Positions 5,652 to 24,293 of a stretch of 24,791 nucleotides of DNA are shown piece by piece. Under the pieces are notes generated by a model. The model was not told the DNA's origin. It did not search any database and saw only the letters and a program-made list of their open reading frames with translations. The position numbers were made by a program, and so were the translations under genes. Each line of letters starts with the position of its first letter. The stretch's first letter is position 1. The DNA comes from a virus, in IMG/VR virus record IMGVR_UViG_3300030331_000425, positions 1-24,791 of that record. One strand, written 5' to 3'.

Positions 5652-5667
5652 CGAACTTAATTGTTCG
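5652..5667 (-). promoter_or_regulatory. Palindrome-like site between capsid terminator and next gene
   Basis: Minus strand reads CGAACAATTAAGTTCG: the array half-site CGAACAATT, two extra bases, then the second arm GTTCG. It is in the only sizeable intergenic gap of the late structural block, directly after the capsid terminator and 27 bases before the next start codon. A weak -10-like TATAGT (minus strand, about 5680-5685) lies just upstream with a poor -35. Together they could form a controlled promoter; this is inference. Confidence 0.45.
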
Positions 5668-15632: not shown

Positions 15633-17101
15633 CAGTAATACTCCATCTTTCTTCTGTAAGCGGGTTCAAACTCCTCATCGTCTGGTGTAGCTATAAAACC
15701 ACCTTGTCTGAATCTTAGTATAGCCTGTGTCATCGAATCTGCCAAGTCATCATGATCACCATGTGGAAAACTCGCACATTCCTCAACAACCTCCTCTGCA
15801 AAATTTGCATCTGGTCTCCAAACCATACCACTTTCAAACACAGGTGCACAAGCATTCATTCTAGCAAACTTATCAGCACCCTTGCTTGGCGTAAATGGCG
15901 TAACTGGAACACCCATACGTCTTAACTCTTGTGTTAATGGCGTGCCACTTGCTTTCTGCTCTATCAAAATCATGTCAGGATCATATGCCTCGGACAACTC
16001 CATTGCTTTTTGCTTGAGTTCTGGAAAATCCCATCTGCCTTTTTCTGCGTCAAGCAAGATGATGGCATCTCCTTCTCCATCAACTGGAGTAAAAATACCC
16101 CAAGTAGTAATAGCACTATAATCAGAACGCTCATTTTTTGTGAACGCTGTGTCGTAGGACTGTATGACATACGAACAGGCAGGTGGGTTATCAGGATTCC
16201 AAACATTCCACCACTCCCTTTTTATTATCGCACCTTCTTCAGCAGTTGGGTTCTGCATATATTGTGCGTTCCATTTACCTACAGGAATAGATGCCTTAAC
16301 GCCCTCTAACTCTTCTCTGCTCCAATATTCTGGCCATAATACATTATCTGTATCTGGAAAAATAGCAGGGAACTCCACGATCTCCCATTTATCAGCTCCG
16401 CCTTGTGCCTGCTTTTGTAATACTCTAGCAGTTAAATCTTTAATACCCCATCTTGTCATAACGATAATTATAGAACCGCCTGGTTGCAGTCTTTGTCTTG
16501 GACCTGATGTATACCAATCATAAATACTGTCCAAAGCCGTTGGACTTAAAGCATCTTGTTCTGATACTGGATCATCAATGATAAGTAAATCCGCACCTCT
16601 ACCAGCTAAAGCACCGCCTACACCAACTGCATAATACTCGCCACCTTTGTTCGTTGACCATCTACCAGATGCTTTTGCATCCGCTGCCAACTTAACATCT
16701 GGAAATACATCACGAAAGTCATCGCTATCAATTAAGTTCTTAACCTTACGACCAAAGCCAACTGCTAATTCTGCCGTATGTGTTGCTTGTATTATTTTTA
16801 AATCAGGGCGTTTGCCCATAAGCCAAGAAGGAAATAAATAACTCGCAAACTCAGACTTTGTATGTCTTGGCGGCATATTGACAATCAAACGCTTAATCTT
16901 ACCATCAGCTACTTGCTGTAGTTTATCTGCATATATCTTATGATGCCTGCCCTCAATGAAAGATGGCCATATGCGTTTGACAAAATCTATATACTTATCT
17001 TGACTTGCTTTCTGCTTTTCAAGCATTGAAAGTCTGTCTAGCATGGGAGCTATCTTAGATAACTCATCATCACTTAAATATTCTGCAAACTCTAGGTTCA
17101 T
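15632..17101 (-). CDS. Terminase large subunit
   Basis: 489 residues, standard size. ATPase part: Walker A-type PPRHTKSE at 77-84, Walker B LLIIDDP at 172-178, coupling-type TRWGIKDLT at 216-224. Nuclease part (RNase H-like): YDTAF with Asp317, LIEQKASGTPL with Glu381, and GDHDDLADS with Asp449 to Asp452. All key residues are present, so the motor and nuclease should be active. It docks on the portal and packs and cuts DNA. The small subunit is unusually distant, at 22579-23106, with about 5.5 kb between. Confidence 0.93.
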   Translation of the reverse strand: MNLEFAEYLSDDELSKIAPMLDRLSMLEKQKASQDKYIDFVKRIWPSFIEGRHHKIYADKLQQVADGKIKRLIVNMPPRHTKSEFASYLFPSWLMGKRPDLKIIQATHTAELAVGFGRKVKNLIDSDDFRDVFPDVKLAADAKASGRWSTNKGGEYYAVGVGGALAGRGADLLIIDDPVSEQDALSPTALDSIYDWYTSGPRQRLQPGGSIIIVMTRWGIKDLTARVLQKQAQGGADKWEIVEFPAIFPDTDNVLWPEYWSREELEGVKASIPVGKWNAQYMQNPTAEEGAIIKREWWNVWNPDNPPACSYVIQSYDTAFTKNERSDYSAITTWGIFTPVDGEGDAIILLDAEKGRWDFPELKQKAMELSEAYDPDMILIEQKASGTPLTQELRRMGVPVTPFTPSKGADKFARMNACAPVFESGMVWRPDANFAEEVVEECASFPHGDHDDLADSMTQAILRFRQGGFIATPDDEEFEPAYRRKMEYY

Positions 17102-18837: not shown

Positions 18838-19245
18838 CTAAGTGGCTTTTTGCAATAGCATTGTCATCTCTCTATTGCTCTGATCTAACAACCTTGTTAC
18901 CCAAATCTCGTCTTGACGCTTATCAGCCTCGCCTATCGTGTGCTCTATGGCGTTGCAAAGCTTCCAAATACGCTGTTCTTCATGTTTTGTTAGTGGGTTT
19001 TTGTTATTATCAAAAGATTTTACCTCTTTTGTGGCTTTTTCAGCCTTTTTAGTGTCAGTATGATACAAAACTGCAAATTTTACCGCCTTTGGTATGCGAT
19101 TTTGACCAGATTCATAACATCTGTAGCCCCTCTCGCTCAATCCTAACGTCTTTGCAAAGTCTATCTGACTCAATCGTAGCTCATTTCGGTGTTTTTTTAA
19201 TATTTCACCATCCCAATCGCTATAACTCGTATCGCTTTTCTTCAT
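18838..19245 (-). CDS. Xre/Cro-CI-type helix-turn-helix regulator
   Basis: 135 residues. A helix-turn-helix of the lambda-repressor type covers about residues 15-65: ILKKHRNELRLSQIDFAKTL, GLSERGYRCYESGQNRIPKA. The rest is helical and charged with no protease-like domain, so a LexA/CI-type self-cleavage is not expected. It would bind DNA as a dimer. It is the only clear DNA-binding regulator in the window and a candidate for the operator-like promoter spacers. The start overlaps the previous stop by four bases (ATGA), so it shares the promoter at 19482-19510. Confidence 0.8.
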   Translation of the reverse strand: MKKSDTSYSDWDGEILKKHRNELRLSQIDFAKTLGLSERGYRCYESGQNRIPKAVKFAVLYHTDTKKAEKATKEVKSFDNNKNPLTKHEEQRIWKLCNAIEHTIGEADKRQDEIWVTRLLDQSNREMTMLLQKAT

Positions 19246-19682: not shown

Positions 19683-20891
19683 TTATGATAATGCTACAAT
19701 TCTTTGATCAAAATAGTTAGCTAGATCTTGACTAATATTTTCATAAACAAAATCAGCTACGTTATAATCAGTAGTAATGGAACCTAAAGACATTCTTGTT
19801 AAAGTTTCTCCATCGTTAATTTTATATCCGCATAAATCATGCTGACCTTGGCTCGATCCATTTTCATAACCATATGAATGTTGGGTTAAACACGTAACCG
19901 CTTTTTGTGTTCTGTATTTTCTTTTAATGGTATTAACTGTACGAGCTACTGAACCTCTACAATTAATATCACATTCTAGCATAATCTCTTGAACCGTTGC
20001 TCCTTGCGGTCTTGATGCTATTTCATAAAACTTAAATAACTTTGTACGAGGTCTAAAGATATTTGACATTGTAAACTCTTCAACATCACCGCTATTAGTT
20101 AGCTTAACTCTATTTTGATAGCTATGATTAAACATACCTAACATTAAATGAGCAAAGTTATTTATCTTATTAAAGTTTAATGTTCCGCTATGTTGCCTAA
20201 CCTCAATAGTATTTTTTGAGATATAAGTTTTATTAAGATTAACAGAATAAAATTTTGTTAGGTAATTATTCATTCGTCTATCATTAACCGCATCATCACA
20301 ATATATAGCTTTTTGTAATTGCTCAACATTAGTGCTATTTTTAATAGGATCTAGATAAGCATAACTTATTGGCATACACATTCTATTCATACGTCTAGAC
20401 TTAGGTAACATAGAAGATATTTTATTTTGATGTTTACAATATCTATAAACAAAATCTTTAATAACCTCAAAATTAAGCATTTCCATATTTTCACATTGAA
20501 AGTAAAAATTTCTATGTTGTTTAAATCTCTCAATTGATTGTTCAAAAAAATCTTTTTGAGAAATATTAATAGGTCTTAAACCTATATGAACATGATGACC
20601 GCAAGATTGTTTAACCTTACAACCTAAAGTTTCATCTAAATAATTATAAAATTCTTTTAGAAATTTTTCTGTATATGGCGAACCTATTTCTAAAGGTGGG
20701 AGTTTAATTTCACAACCTGTTTCTCCTAAATATTCTCGATCTACTTTAGGAGCTAAGAAACTATATTTTTCATGATTAGATAAAATATCGGCCATTTGAT
20801 GTTCATTATATTTTAAACATTCTATTTCTAGACCCATAGCTAAACGTATACTGTTAACGTCTAATATTTTGTTATGTGTTATTATATCCAT
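19683..20891 (-). CDS. Amidoligase-family protein (COOH-NH2 ligase) with HTH-like tail
   Basis: 402 residues. N-terminal two-thirds match the Amidoligase_2 type (glutamine-synthetase-like fold): GLEIEC at 20-25, CEIKLPPL at 60-67, CGHHVHIG at 97-104, and TIEVRQHSGTLNFNKI at 228-243; the Glu, His and Arg of these motifs form the expected metal/ATP site. Such enzymes join a carboxyl group to an amine using ATP. Residues about 285-360 (GATVQEIMLECDINCRGSVA, RTVNTIKRKYRT, GYKI) look like a winged helix. The substrate is unknown: a peptide, a host protein, a polyamine or a cell-wall part. The family is known beside AIG2-type cyclotransferases, and one is present at 23841-24293. AAGGA lies ten bases upstream of the ATG. 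Confidence 0.75.
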   Translation of the reverse strand: MDIITHNKILDVNSIRLAMGLEIECLKYNEHQMADILSNHEKYSFLAPKVDREYLGETGCEIKLPPLEIGSPYTEKFLKEFYNYLDETLGCKVKQSCGHHVHIGLRPINISQKDFFEQSIERFKQHRNFYFQCENMEMLNFEVIKDFVYRYCKHQNKISSMLPKSRRMNRMCMPISYAYLDPIKNSTNVEQLQKAIYCDDAVNDRRMNNYLTKFYSVNLNKTYISKNTIEVRQHSGTLNFNKINNFAHLMLGMFNHSYQNRVKLTNSGDVEEFTMSNIFRPRTKLFKFYEIASRPQGATVQEIMLECDINCRGSVARTVNTIKRKYRTQKAVTCLTQHSYGYENGSSQGQHDLCGYKINDGETLTRMSLGSITTDYNVADFVYENISQDLANYFDQRIVALS

Positions 20892-20939: not shown

Positions 20940-20971
20940 TATAGGTAATGAATGCAAGTTATAATTGTTCG
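20940..20971 (+). promoter_or_regulatory. P4: promoter-like element at the left edge of the array
   Basis: Plus strand TATAGGTAATGAATGC (20940-20955) differs by one base from the spacer of promoter P3, and a perfect TATAAT follows (20960-20965), running into the half-site AATTGTTCG (20963-20971). No -35 is present, so promoter strength is doubtful. It might drive rightward transcription over the array, or serve as an operator for the leftward amidoligase gene. Confidence 0.4.
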
Positions 20972-21115: not shown

Positions 21116-21570
21116 TGGGCCCGACCTGAACCCGACCCGAACATTAGCCCCGACTGGCCCGAGCCCGACCCGAACACCGAACAATTGTTCGGTTTTTACA
21201 GGTGCAGCAGGTCTGGCCTCCACGCCAGGTAGTCCAGGGGATACTGGTTGAAGGGATGCCCAGACCCGATACCGAACAATTGTTCAAAACAGCCTGACCC
21301 GAAGGCCCGAAGACAGTCTGGGTAAGCTGGGCAGCTCGGCGTAAAGCGAACAATTGATCGGTTACAGCTTCGCTGCAGGTCTGGGCACTAGGCCCAGCTC
21401 AATATAAAGCGAACAATTATTCGTTTTTGTGGAGGCTGCAGGTCAGGCCCAGGACTGGCGTAGCGAACAATTATTCGATTTTCTGACCCAGGCAGGTCTG
21501 GACCCGAACAAAAAAAACCCCGAGCCAGAAGCTCGGGGCTTATAATTTGCACGCATGCCCGAACAATTCG
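21116..21570. repeat. Palindrome array, block A
   Basis: GC-rich segment. 14-bp elements on the plus strand: 21178 CGAACAATTGTTCG (perfect 18-bp dyad 21176-21193), 21273 CGAACAATTGTTCA, 21347 CGAACAATTGATCG, 21410 and 21464 CGAACAATTATTCG, and a truncated one at 21560. Spacings are 95, 74, 63 and 54 bp. Degenerate, inverted half-sites lie outside the left end (20963, 21078). The left arm CGAACAATT never varies; the right arm does. Spacers carry GCAGGTCTGG and small hairpins such as CTGGGCACTAGGCCCAG (21381-21397). The left border (21116-21180) is a run of CCCGAN hexamers. No protein-coding signal is convincing. Confidence 0.9.
21510..21538 (-). terminator. Intrinsic terminator after the acidic protein gene
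   Basis: Perfect 8-bp GC-rich stem (CCCCGAGC at 21518-21525 with GCTCGGGG at 21531-21538), five-base loop, then eight U on the minus strand (21510-21517). It lies 50 bases after the stop of 21588-21944, inside array block A, and stops leftward transcription before most of the block. Confidence 0.9.
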
Positions 21571-21587
21571 GGGGGTGCAAAACCTGT

Positions 21588-21944
21588 TTAAAATCTGCTA
21601 ATGATAAAAGGAAGTTCCTTTTCATCATCATTCTTGCCTTGCCAACAATCAGGTAAGATAACGCTGGTGTAGTAATCCAAGCATAGTTTATCGCCTCCTA
21701 ATACTTGGTCGTAAGTGTCTCCGTAGTCATCCTCAAACTCTTTCCAGTTTGCGTATTCTGTATAATCGCAACAGATAGCCACAACGTCCAGCTCAATTTG
21801 TTTGTTGTCCATGCACTCGCTGACCTCCCAAAGATAATCATATAGTGCTTTTAAACCCTCATAAGAAAAATGGTTCTTATAAGTGTCCCATTTTCTAAAA
21901 GCATCGATAAACTGATGCTCGTTAATAGTTTCTACAATTGCCAT
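21588..21944 (-). CDS. Small acidic phage protein inside the palindrome island
   Basis: 118 residues, very acidic (about 27 Asp/Glu against 10 Lys/Arg). It begins MAIVETINEHQFIDAFRKWD, then FSYEGLKALYDYLWEVSECM, ELDVVAICCDYTEYANWKEF and an acidic stretch EDDYGDTYD. This type (TIN-x2-x-F-x2-AF..., FSYEGL.ALYDYL, LDVVAICC-[DE]-Y-[ST]-EY) recurs in phages and plasmids as a hypothetical protein. The charge could mean DNA mimicry, as in anti-restriction proteins, but this is not shown. GGAG six bases before the ATG; own promoter (21978-22006) and terminator (21510-21538), with array blocks on both sides. Confidence 0.75.
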   Translation of the reverse strand: MAIVETINEHQFIDAFRKWDTYKNHFSYEGLKALYDYLWEVSECMDNKQIELDVVAICCDYTEYANWKEFEDDYGDTYDQVLGGDKLCLDYYTSVILPDCWQGKNDDEKELPFIISRF

Positions 21945-21977
21945 AATAGACTCCTTTTGTTTTTGTTTGTCCTTATA

Positions 21978-22006
21978 TATATAGTCAATGATTGCCGATC
22001 AGTCAA
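21978..22006 (-). promoter_or_regulatory. Promoter P2 for the acidic protein gene
   Basis: Minus strand: TTGACT (22001-22006), 17 bases, TATATA (21978-21983). The spacer GATCGGCAATCATTGAC contains the dyad CAATCATTG. Long A-runs on the minus strand (22018-22036) upstream look like an UP element. It drives the gene at 21588-21944; the start point should fall near 21971. Confidence 0.8.
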
Positions 22007-22071
22007 CAGGTAATTTATCTTTTTTTTATTTTTTTTCAGAACTGGGGCAACTGGGGCCTCGCTGCCAGAAG

Positions 22072-22560
22072 CGAACAATTGTTCACGCTGTCTTCAGGCA
22101 GCAGGAACAAGCTGGGCAGTCTGGGCCATCGGCTGCGTAAGCGAACAATTGTTCAAAGTGCTTCCCAGGCAGCAGGGCCTTGTCTGGTTGGAACTGGTCA
22201 TTAGCTGCGTAAATGAACAATTGTTCGTAATCCCGAACAGCAGCAGGCCCGAGCCTCCCTGGTTGAACTGGTGGATCTGGGTACAGGGCGAACAATTGTT
22301 CAGAACCCGACAGGCTGCGTGACCTGCTGGACCCCGAAGCCCGAACAATTATTCACTTTAGGCAGCAGGTGAAGGCCTGGGTGTCCCGAAACCGAACAAT
22401 TATTCGGTCTGGGCAGCAGGTTGAACCAGGCTGGGCAGGAACCCGAAAAGCGAACAATGGCTGTTTTCTGCGGGTTTGGTGGTAACCCGAAGCCCGAAGT
22501 ACCCAAGCATCAGCCCGAGCCCGAGGTCTGGGCAACCCCGAACCCGACTGCCCGAGGCAC
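22072..22560. repeat. Palindrome array, block B
   Basis: Elements on the plus strand: 22072, 22142 and 22289 CGAACAATTGTTCA; 22214 TGAACAATTGTTCG; 22342 CGAACAATTATTCA; 22393 CGAACAATTATTCG; a left half-site at 22451. Spacings are 70, 72, 75, 53, 51 and 58 bp. Spacers share GGCAGCAGG about 10 bases after each element, then CTGGG or CTGGTT, and in two cases GCTGCGTAAG just before the next element. The right border (22485-22556) is again CCCGAN-rich. The region ends 20-30 bases from the terS stop. Several frames stay open on the minus strand, but only because the repeat units lack stop codons. Confidence 0.9.
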
Positions 22561-22578: not shown

Positions 22579-23106
22579 CTAATTTGTGGGTTTTACGCTA
22601 CTATGTTCTATCGTATTTGGGTCGTTATGGGTAGTGTTCGCTATTTTCATGCGTTTATGGGCAAGTTCCTGAAATTCCTGTAGTTTTGTCAGTATTTGTT
22701 CTCTTGTCATAGTGTCTGCCTGTTCATGTAGCACATGGGCCTTATTTACAAGCAATCCTGTAGCCTTTAAGCGTAGTTCTTCAGCCCGAATAGCCTCACC
22801 AAACTTCCCGCTCTCCCAAGCCTCATTTCGTATCTTTAATAAATCCCGCACCGACTTCTCAATTGTTACCCCGAATCGACTCCGAGCTTCCTCCCGCATC
22901 TCTTGATAACGCTCTTGGACAACTGGGTTCCGAAGCAGCCTAACTGCATCTACTCCAGGGTTAGCATATCCCGCTGCTCTCGCTGCAGACGTCTGCGTCA
23001 TATCTTTGTGCATGAAGTTATCAAGAAAAGCTTGTTGTTTATCTGTTAGTCTTTTCTGACCAGATAGCCTTCGCTCCCTAGACAGATCTTCACCTACTCT
23101 TGGCAT
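22579..23106 (-). CDS. Terminase small subunit (Terminase_2 type)
   Basis: 175 residues from ATG 23104-23106, chosen for GGAG five to six bases upstream; the longer frame from 23121 has no ribosome site. Residues about 18-70 hold the helix-turn-helix: KRLTDKQQAFLDNFMHKDMT, QTSAARAAGYANPGVDAVRL, LRNPVVQERY. A coiled oligomerisation part follows. The small subunit recognises the packaging start site and regulates the large subunit. Here terL is about 5.5 kb away, and the palindrome array starts directly after this gene, so the array is a candidate for its binding region. This last point is inference. Confidence 0.8.
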   Translation of the reverse strand: MPRVGEDLSRERRLSGQKRLTDKQQAFLDNFMHKDMTQTSAARAAGYANPGVDAVRLLRNPVVQERYQEMREEARSRFGVTIEKSVRDLLKIRNEAWESGKFGEAIRAEELRLKATGLLVNKAHVLHEQADTMTREQILTKLQEFQELAHKRMKIANTTHNDPNTIEHSSVKPTN

Positions 23107-23269
23107 TAGTTCTCCTTTCATTATCTAACTCGGCTATTTTATCTTTTAGTTGATTTATAATAGGTCTAAAATATTTTGGTTTACGGATGCTTCTTAAATA
23201 TTTTTCGTGGCGAGTTTCTAACATCGTGTAATGTAATAGTCGTAATCCTAATTGTTTTCTTTTGTTCAT
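23090..23269 (-). CDS. Small basic coiled-coil protein before terS
   Basis: 59 residues, found by reading. Starts MNKRKQLGLRLLHYTMLETR, then KPKYFRPIINQLKDKIAELD and a basic tail. The second half is a good heptad pattern (IINQLKDKIAELDNE). It overlaps the terS start by 17 bases, so the two are translated together. Ribosome site is weak (AGGG nine bases upstream). It might be a partner of terS; function unknown. Confidence 0.6.
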   Translation of the reverse strand: MNKRKQLGLRLLHYTMLETRHEKYLRSIRKPKYFRPIINQLKDKIAELDNERRTNAKSR

Positions 23270-23532: not shown

Positions 23533-23841
23533 TCACTCATAAATGACCAGGACTTTCTCATCATTTGTTCGCTTAAACCAGCTGCCTGCGTTGGTGCATT
23601 CGTACCCAAGTTTTTTCATAGTTCCCCAAGTTACGACAAAGCAATAATGGCAATCATTAGGTCCAGTTCCAGCTTTCTTAAAGCAATTAAGCTTATGGTT
23701 AATGTCCACACTATGGACCCGAGTGATACCTTTTTCTGTGGCACAACCGAGGCAAATAGTTTTGTTATTCAAAACCAACTCTCGGTTGCGTAAGATTTGT
23801 TCGCTACACTCAGTGCAGCGGATCAGATCAACGTTAATCAT
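23533..23841 (-). CDS. Small zinc-binding-type protein
   Basis: 102 residues with eight cysteines. C9-x2-C12 and C30-x2-C33 (RCTECSEQIL and TICLGCATEK) look like a zinc ribbon; C53, C64, C67 and C82 (NDCHYCFVV) could form a second site. The rest is mixed. TAATG overlap couples it to the AIG2-type gene upstream. It may bind DNA, RNA or a protein. I do not recognise a named family. Confidence 0.6.
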   Translation of the reverse strand: MINVDLIRCTECSEQILRNRELVLNNKTICLGCATEKGITRVHSVDINHKLNCFKKAGTGPNDCHYCFVVTWGTMKKLGYECTNAGSWFKRTNDEKVLVIYE

Positions 23842-24293
23842 TAGCTACCTACCTTTCTAAATACATCTAATTTATTTTTTTGCATTTGGTCGGCCTCATG
23901 CACTGCCCAATTAAGATAATCAGTATCAAGGCCAAAATCTTCATAACCCTGGGCAATAGTGTTGAAGTAATGAGCGGCGGGCAATGCCACACCTTTATTA
24001 CGCATAACATAAATCATTACTTTACCATTAACACCTGGAATATCTAAATCGACCCTAATCTTTTTATACAAGTATGGATAGCCCTCGAATCTATCTAAGG
24101 ACTTCTCACATTCTTTGGTGATTTTCCATAAGCCAATAGGCACTTGTGCGTCTTTGTCCTTAACAATGTCTGCAACACCATTAAAGACAAGCCTAAAGCC
24201 CTCGAGCATGAAGCTAATCATGGGTTGGGCTTTGGGGCAACGCACTGCCATATTGTCTTTATTTAGATTGGCACCATAAGCACCATAATACAT
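23841..24293 (-). CDS. AIG2 / gamma-glutamyl cyclotransferase-fold protein
   Basis: 150 residues, standard size. N-terminal YYGAYGANLNKDNMAVRCPK is the family's substrate-loop signature (usually YGSNL; here the Ser is Ala). KSLDRFEGYPYLYKKIRVDL carries the likely catalytic Glu70. The C-terminal helix region (YFNTIAQGYEDFGLDTDYL) also matches. Known members remove gamma-glutamyl groups from amines or peptides as 5-oxoproline. With the amidoligase at 19683-20891 it could form an add-and-remove pair for a glutamyl-type tag; this is inference. Overlaps both neighbours by one base (TAATG). Confidence 0.75.
   Translation of the reverse strand: MYYGAYGANLNKDNMAVRCPKAQPMISFMLEGFRLVFNGVADIVKDKDAQVPIGLWKITKECEKSLDRFEGYPYLYKKIRVDLDIPGVNGKVMIYVMRNKGVALPAAHYFNTIAQGYEDFGLDTDYLNWAVHEADQMQKNKLDVFRKVGS

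What the first reader, a model, noticed from the sequence alone, without database searches (positions are those of the whole stretch)
21116..22560. Array of 14-bp palindromes in a GC-rich island of an AT-rich phage
Eleven full copies of CGAACAATTGTTCG or one- to two-base variants, plus two degenerate ones, lie in two blocks either side of one gene. Spacing is 51-95 bp, mostly near 55 or 70. The island is visibly richer in G and C than all surrounding genes and has no convincing coding content of its own. Candidate roles: replication origin, packaging site bound by TerS, partition-type centromere, or a decoy array for a DNA-binding protein. I know of no described phage system with this layout.
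Basis: partly seen in the sequence, partly recalled or inferred. Interest (0 to 1): 0.9.

Follow-up and report, generated by a model that had tools for sequence, protein, structure and literature searches.

The report
Operator array for a DNA-binding amidoligase
A marine phage carries a row of identical DNA 'landing pads' next to its packaging gene, and comparison of about 200 relatives shows that the pads come and go with a phage enzyme (an amidoligase) that has a DNA-binding tail, so the pads are probably where that enzyme docks rather than the packaging signal or replication origin they resemble.

Summary
The array is real: 11 copies of CGAACAATTGTTCG (2 or fewer mismatches) at 21178-22406, 0 of 100 shuffles as many. 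It is a family trait. 78 of 81 non-redundant relatives carry palindromes within 600 bp of terS, in spacers that separate swappable single-gene cassettes. Across 58 unrelated loci the site spacings are helically phased (about 10.6 bp, whole turns, p about 2e-7). The full site is a 22-24-bp dyad, TAACCCGAACAATTGTTCGGGTTA in one clade. There is no hairpin covariation, so this is a DNA operator.

It is probably not a packaging site or an origin. Palindromes vanish in three separate TerS clades that keep terS and the GC-rich spacers. What vanishes with them is a neighbouring gene, a glutamine-synthetase-fold amidoligase with a C-terminal winged helix (window 19683-20891, model pLDDT 90), plus its partner GGCT. 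Every amidoligase-bearing locus that reaches the terS side has palindromes (143 of 143, then 53 of 53 in a second sample); 8 of 8 palindrome-free loci lack it.

Best reading: operators for the phage's own ligase-regulator, BirA-like in logic and possibly controlling the cassette zone. Binding and function are inferred, not shown. Palindromes are not preferred recombination joints. Helix-motif co-variation is suggestive only.

The parts
21178..21477 (.). Palindrome block 1: CGAACAATTGTTCG sites at 21178, 21273, 21347, 21410, 21464 (each 14 bp). On the reverse (terS-sense) strand the conserved half reads ATTGTTCG.
22072..22406 (.). Palindrome block 2: sites at 22072, 22142, 22214, 22289, 22342, 22393, directly downstream of terS.
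21560..21567 (.). Degenerate half-site CGAACAAT(TCGG) beside the cassette terminator.
22451..22458 (.). Degenerate half-site CGAACAAT(GG).
20964..20971 (.). Half-site ATTGTTCG (reverse strand CGAACAAT) about 75-80 bp upstream of the amidoligase start; by eye it abuts the promoter region.
   Evidence: promoter assignment by eye, not called by the scan
19683..20891 (-). Candidate array-binding protein: amidoligase (Amidoligase_2, glutamine-synthetase-like fold) with C-terminal winged helix (residues about 284-374).
   Evidence: co-occurrence
23841..24293 (-). Gamma-glutamyl cyclotransferase (GGCT/AIG2), lost together with the amidoligase and the palindromes.
21588..21944 (-). Single-gene cassette (118 aa, phrog_9974) between the two palindrome blocks; other genes occupy this slot in relatives.
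21515..21541 (-). Intrinsic terminator of the cassette gene.
21978..22006 (-). Promoter of the cassette gene (TTGACT-17-TATATA), read by eye; resembles promoters before other cassettes.
   Evidence: (relatives); not found by the scan, whose rule excludes TATATA
22579..23121 (-). terS (Terminase_2), the conserved neighbour at whose 3' end the array begins; not the predicted binder.
18838..19245 (-). Xre-type HTH protein, considered as binder and found not obligatory.

Best explanation
The palindromes are operators for the phage's own DNA-binding amidoligase, encoded beside them. SHOWN: the full site is a 22-24-bp dyad; neighbouring sites sit whole helical turns apart; no compensatory changes occur, so it acts as DNA and not as an RNA hairpin; sites peak in the first 500 bp after terS and fill the spacers around swappable single-gene cassettes; palindromes are found wherever the amidoligase is found and were lost with it three times, while terS and the GC-rich spacers stayed. 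The amidoligase is predicted to be a glutamine-synthetase-fold carboxylate-amine ligase carrying a winged helix. INFERRED: dimers of this protein bind the dyads and line up on one face of the DNA, forming a nucleoprotein array over the cassette zone. There it most likely acts as a ligase-regulator (BirA-like logic) that controls or insulates cassette transcription and possibly its own gene, with the ligase reaction, opposed by GGCT, as the switch. I put about 0.65 on the binder being this protein and about 0.35 on the transcription role.
For: Dyad logo. Helical phasing over 169 spacings from 58 loci, R 0.31, whole-turn phase, Rayleigh p 2e-7, jitter null p 5e-5 or less. No compensatory double changes. 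Position profile peaking 0-500 bp after terS, 6.1 per kb against about 0 beyond 4 kb; 78 of 81 loci. Co-occurrence: amidoligase+/palindrome+ 143, amidoligase+/palindrome- 0, amidoligase-/palindrome- 8. Of 17 apparent exceptions, 12 have an amidoligase cut at the contig edge and 5 end before terL. A second sample fetched by amidoligase alone: 53 of 53 loci that reach the terS side have palindromes, and the 7 with 0-1 sites begin in or close to the amidoligase gene. Three separate losses on the TerS tree; GC-rich spacers persist without palindromes. GGCT and amidoligase are the two commonest genes of array-bearing loci that are absent from palindrome-free ones. Model pLDDT 90.5 with an H-H-H-strand C-terminus; the C-terminal model alone draws mostly winged-helix regulators.
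Against: No binding has been shown. Foldseek hits of the C-terminal domain are individually weak (best E 0.16) and no Pfam HTH passes its cut-off. Palindrome-free loci also lack GGCT and a small gene next to the amidoligase, so another lost protein could be the binder. Loss counts rest on 8 loci, five of them short downstream of terS. Recognition-helix class and outer site bases co-vary only loosely (p 0.02, not corrected for ancestry). Phasing in 9 further loci (13 spacings) had a different phase. Sites show no fixed position against the amidoligase start.
Confidence: 0.5

Rival explanations
1. Packaging site: TerS binds the phased palindromes downstream of its own gene and TerL makes the first headful cut there.
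For: Array starts a median 172 bp after terS in 78 of 81 loci. Helical phasing suits wrapping on a TerS ring. G004 and G017 ends look circular and permuted, as in headful packaging. TerS-pac recognition is poorly understood (PMC4737164, PMC9611059).
Against: Three clades with closely related TerS (63-81% identity to an array-bearing relative) have no palindromes and 0-2 half-sites. Related pelagiphages with divergent TerS have none. Sites extend 3 kb downstream and, in some lineages, upstream of terS.
Confidence: 0.12
2. Replication origin with iterons bound by a phage initiator.
For: Iteron-like phased repeats with AT-rich stretches alongside. The lineage has its own Toprim/AAA_25 primase-helicase not detected in the four relatives without palindromes.
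Against: Repeats lost three times while neighbouring genes persisted. No initiator gene identified. GC skew gives no break, but nearly all genes run one way, so that test is weak.
Confidence: 0.08
3. Operators of another regulator: the Xre protein, a protein of unknown fold, or a host LexA-like repressor.
For: CGAAC-N4-GTTCG resembles Gram-positive SOS boxes (own knowledge). An Xre gene lies close by.
Against: Xre absent from 4 of 17 array-bearing loci spanning terS-terL. The AATT centre is almost invariant, unlike LexA boxes. LexA does not explain loss together with the amidoligase.
Confidence: 0.15
4. Exchange joints for cassettes, by analogy to integron attC sites or T4 PeSL cassettes.
For: Cassettes swap between close relatives; L007 and L008 carry an extra cassette bracketed by the same palindrome that stands alone in the window. 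Alignment ends pile up at palindrome edges (114 against 33 expected).
Against: Exact insertions are no commoner at palindromes than elsewhere in the spacers: 11 of 844 sites against 15 of 840 controls. The pile-up is inflated by conservation of the palindrome.
Confidence: 0.08

Closest known systems
BirA-type ligase-repressors (biotin protein ligase with winged helix)
   Same: A ligase fused to a winged helix, with a palindromic operator near genes it could regulate (own knowledge of BirA; winged helix predicted here).
   Different: Other ligase fold (glutamine-synthetase-like); winged helix at the C-terminus; 3-11 phased sites instead of one operator; phage-borne; regulation untested.
Mycobacteriophage L5 stoperators (PMC6550527)
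   Same: Many copies of one regulator site in a phage genome, mostly away from promoters, with a conserved half oriented with transcription near terS (167:28).
   Different: Stoperators are asymmetric and spread over the genome; these sites are dyads clustered in the terS-terL spacers and phased.
Phage amidoligase (PF12224) plus GGCT/AIG2 pairs (Iyer et al. 2009, cited in PMC10580990)
   Same: Same enzyme families in one phage genome (the pairing is from own knowledge of that paper).
   Different: Other phage amidoligases found align only to residues up to about 287, without the winged helix; no operator array reported. A search for papers with amidoligase, winged helix and phage found none in the library.
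HTVC023P/HTVC027P pelagiphages and 023Pt_psg01 (PMC9599517)
   Same: Related terS, terL, portal and capsid; GC-rich spacers between terS and terL in 023Pt_psg01 and HTVC027P.
   Different: No palindrome and no amidoligase; HTVC027P has GCTTG-type repeats instead.

Membership tests
pac site bound by TerS | Present wherever the cognate terS functions | tested here: not met
   8 loci in 3 clades with close TerS relatives have 0 palindromes.
pac site bound by TerS | Lies in or next to terS | tested here: met
   78 of 81 loci within 600 bp.
pac site bound by TerS | TerS binds it and the first cut maps there | not testable with these tools
   Needs protein and virion-end mapping.
Replication origin with iterons | Maintained in all replicating relatives | tested here: not met
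   Repeats lost three times, unless replaced by another origin.
Replication origin with iterons | Cognate initiator and start point | not tested
   No initiator identified; no read data.
BirA-like ligase-repressor | Ligase domain fused to a winged helix | tested here: met
   By prediction only: AF2 pLDDT 90.5, GS-like fold plus H-H-H-strand C-terminus.
BirA-like ligase-repressor | Palindromic operator tied to the protein | tested here: met
   22-24-bp dyad, perfect co-occurrence in loci with adequate sequence. This is association, not binding.
BirA-like ligase-repressor | Operator controls its own promoter | tested here: inconclusive
   Half-site near the window promoter, but distances to the start are broad across loci.
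Integron-attC-like recombination joint | Insertions occur preferentially at the site | tested here: not met
   11 of 844 against 15 of 840 controls.
RNA hairpin or terminator | Compensatory base-pair changes | tested here: not met
   0-1 double changes at stem positions; no Rfam match.
L5-type stoperators | Asymmetric site, genome-wide, bound by an immunity repressor | tested here: not met
   Sites are dyads concentrated in the terS-terL region; no repressor shown.
Host motif (uptake signal, Chi, LexA box) | Dense in the host genome | tested here: inconclusive
ParB-type centromere | Cognate ParB encoded | not tested
   No dedicated search for ParB was made.

The most novel reading that the evidence does not exclude
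A DNA-tethered amidoligase: the enzyme is loaded on a phased array on the phage genome and conjugates an amino compound onto proteins bound to that DNA (polymerase, terminase or packaging factors), with GGCT reversing the mark, so that phage nucleoprotein is chemically labelled in place.
Probability: 0.12. Interest if true: 0.9.

Novelty: new variant of a known kind. Interest (0 to 1): 0.62.

Why it matters
It gives an uncharacterised phage amidoligase-GGCT pair a concrete DNA target and a testable role, and it shows that an array beside terS that looks like a packaging site can belong to another system. If binding is confirmed, it adds a ligase-plus-DNA-binding regulator with many phased operators to phage biology, attached to a zone where phages trade single genes.

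Tried and rejected
TerS/pac as binder: favoured at first by position, then set aside because the array is lost three times while terS stays. Recombination joint: suggested by the window/L007/L008 comparison and by alignment ends, rejected as a dedicated joint by the matched-control test. RNA hairpin: no covariation. Xre as the obligatory binder: missing in 4 of 17 loci. Genome-wide half-site enrichment: strong in G004 coding sequence (32 against 1.9 by synonymous shuffle, a count that includes a few sites in a spurious ORF over the array) and G001 (8 against 0.9), modest in clade B (42 against 20 outside palindromes) and absent without palindromes (2 against 3), so it is lineage-dependent. The unrelated phage L126/G011 shares the palindrome but no proteins. 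Helix-motif covariation is suggestive only: the helix extraction is imperfect, it missed the window's own helix, and the two calls grouped lineages differently. Promoter scan not above chance. PADLOC: no defence family for the amidoligase or GGCT. A Pfam call failed on wrong coordinates and one script timed out.

Full report
OBSERVATION. The window is a 24.8-kb IMG/VR contig of a marine tailed phage; TerL is 56-60% identical to pelagiphages HTVC023P/HTVC027P and to 023Pt_psg01. The array is as described: 11 sites at 2 or fewer mismatches in two blocks either side of ORF 21588-21944, with 0 of 100 shuffles matching.

CONSERVATION AND PLACE. TerS relatives in IMG/VR mostly carry the palindrome. 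A blind scan for two near copies returned 9 contigs, all of this lineage. In 88 non-redundant terS loci, palindromes reach 6.1 per kb in the 500 bp after terS, none are found in the 500-bp bin covering terS, and they fade by 4 kb. Gene order is terS, array, variable single-gene cassettes separated by palindromes, amidoligase, then terL. By eye each cassette has its own promoter and terminator; the generic promoter scan was not above chance.

NATURE OF THE SITE. The logo extends to a dyad, AANC-CGAACAATTGTTCG-GNTT in clade A and TAACCCGAACAATTGTTCGGGTTA in clade B. Stem positions show no compensatory changes, so hairpins are disfavoured. In 58 loci chosen to share little sequence, 169 spacings cluster at whole turns of about 10.5-10.75 bp, R 0.31, Rayleigh p 2e-7, jitter control p 5e-5 or less. 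A small second set (9 loci, 13 spacings) gave p 0.03 with a different phase, so it does not cleanly replicate.

WHO BINDS. TerS was the first candidate. Eight loci with closely related TerS have no palindrome. They form three separate clades inside the palindrome-bearing tree, keep GC-rich spacers with TTCGGG-like words, and hold 0-2 half-sites. None has the amidoligase by tblastn, and none has GGCT. Among TerS loci with at least 2.5 kb downstream: amidoligase and palindromes 143, neither 8, amidoligase without palindromes 0, palindromes without a complete amidoligase ORF 17. Of those 17, 12 have the gene cut at the contig edge and 5 end before terL. A sample gathered by amidoligase alone gave palindromes in all 53 loci that reach the terS side; the 7 with 0-1 sites start in or close to the amidoligase gene. 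A survey of co-lost genes put GGCT and the amidoligase first, then a small gene beside the amidoligase. Other, rarer genes are also absent from the palindrome-free loci, so the pairing is strong but not exclusive.

THE PROTEIN. The 402-aa amidoligase has invariant E22, E24, E61, H100, R166, E230, R232. Its AF2 model has pLDDT 90.5 and matches glutamate-cysteine-ligase and glutamine-synthetase folds. The C-terminus forms H-H-H-strand; modelled alone it draws mostly winged-helix regulators, each weakly (best E 0.16). Other phage amidoligases found align only to the enzyme part.

HOW IT PROBABLY WORKS. Dimers of the amidoligase bind the dyads in register and build a nucleoprotein array across the cassette zone. 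The most economical role is regulation or insulation of cassette transcription, with the ligase reaction and GGCT as the switch. Binding, dimerisation and regulation are all inferred. Outer site bases differ between recognition-helix classes (p 0.02). This was one of two groupings tried, does not correct for ancestry, and rests on an imperfect helix extraction, so I treat it as suggestive.

REJECTED OR WEAKENED. The recombination-joint idea came from a clean example: the window has one palindrome where L007 and L008 have a cassette with a palindrome at each edge. A matched-control count then showed no preference for palindromes, which outweighs the biased alignment-end count. Xre is not obligatory. 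Half-site enrichment in coding sequence is strong in G004, weaker elsewhere, and absent without palindromes.

VERDICT. Observation confirmed; function reassigned from packaging or origin to probable operators of a DNA-binding amidoligase.

Noticed in passing
L099 (G004:C1:35104-35946): Relative G004 encodes a Mom-family protein (PF25680, E 1e-21), suggesting modified DNA in this lineage.
   Followed up: no
L095:15949-16075 and 16839-16890: Pelagiphage HTVC027P has GC-rich GCTTG-type tandem repeats (partly 7-bp period) between terS and terL, a different repeat in the same place.
   Followed up: partly
L126 / G011:C1:12912-17989: An unrelated 62.6-kb phage has five CGAACAATTGTTCG palindromes in non-coding gaps and shares no proteins with this family.
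   Followed up: partly
G004 and G017 contig ends: G004 has a 25-bp exact terminal overlap; G017 repeats its start about 1.07 kb from its end and its map is permuted relative to G004, consistent with circularly permuted genomes.
   Followed up: partly
window 21178-21191 against L007 and L008: A cassette present in L007 and L008 is absent from the window, the junction being one palindrome with matching outer flanks.
   Followed up: yes
window 5660-5667: Half-site ATTGTTCG in the gap before the major head protein gene is conserved in G001, and a similar context is found in G004 inside a called ORF.
   Followed up: no
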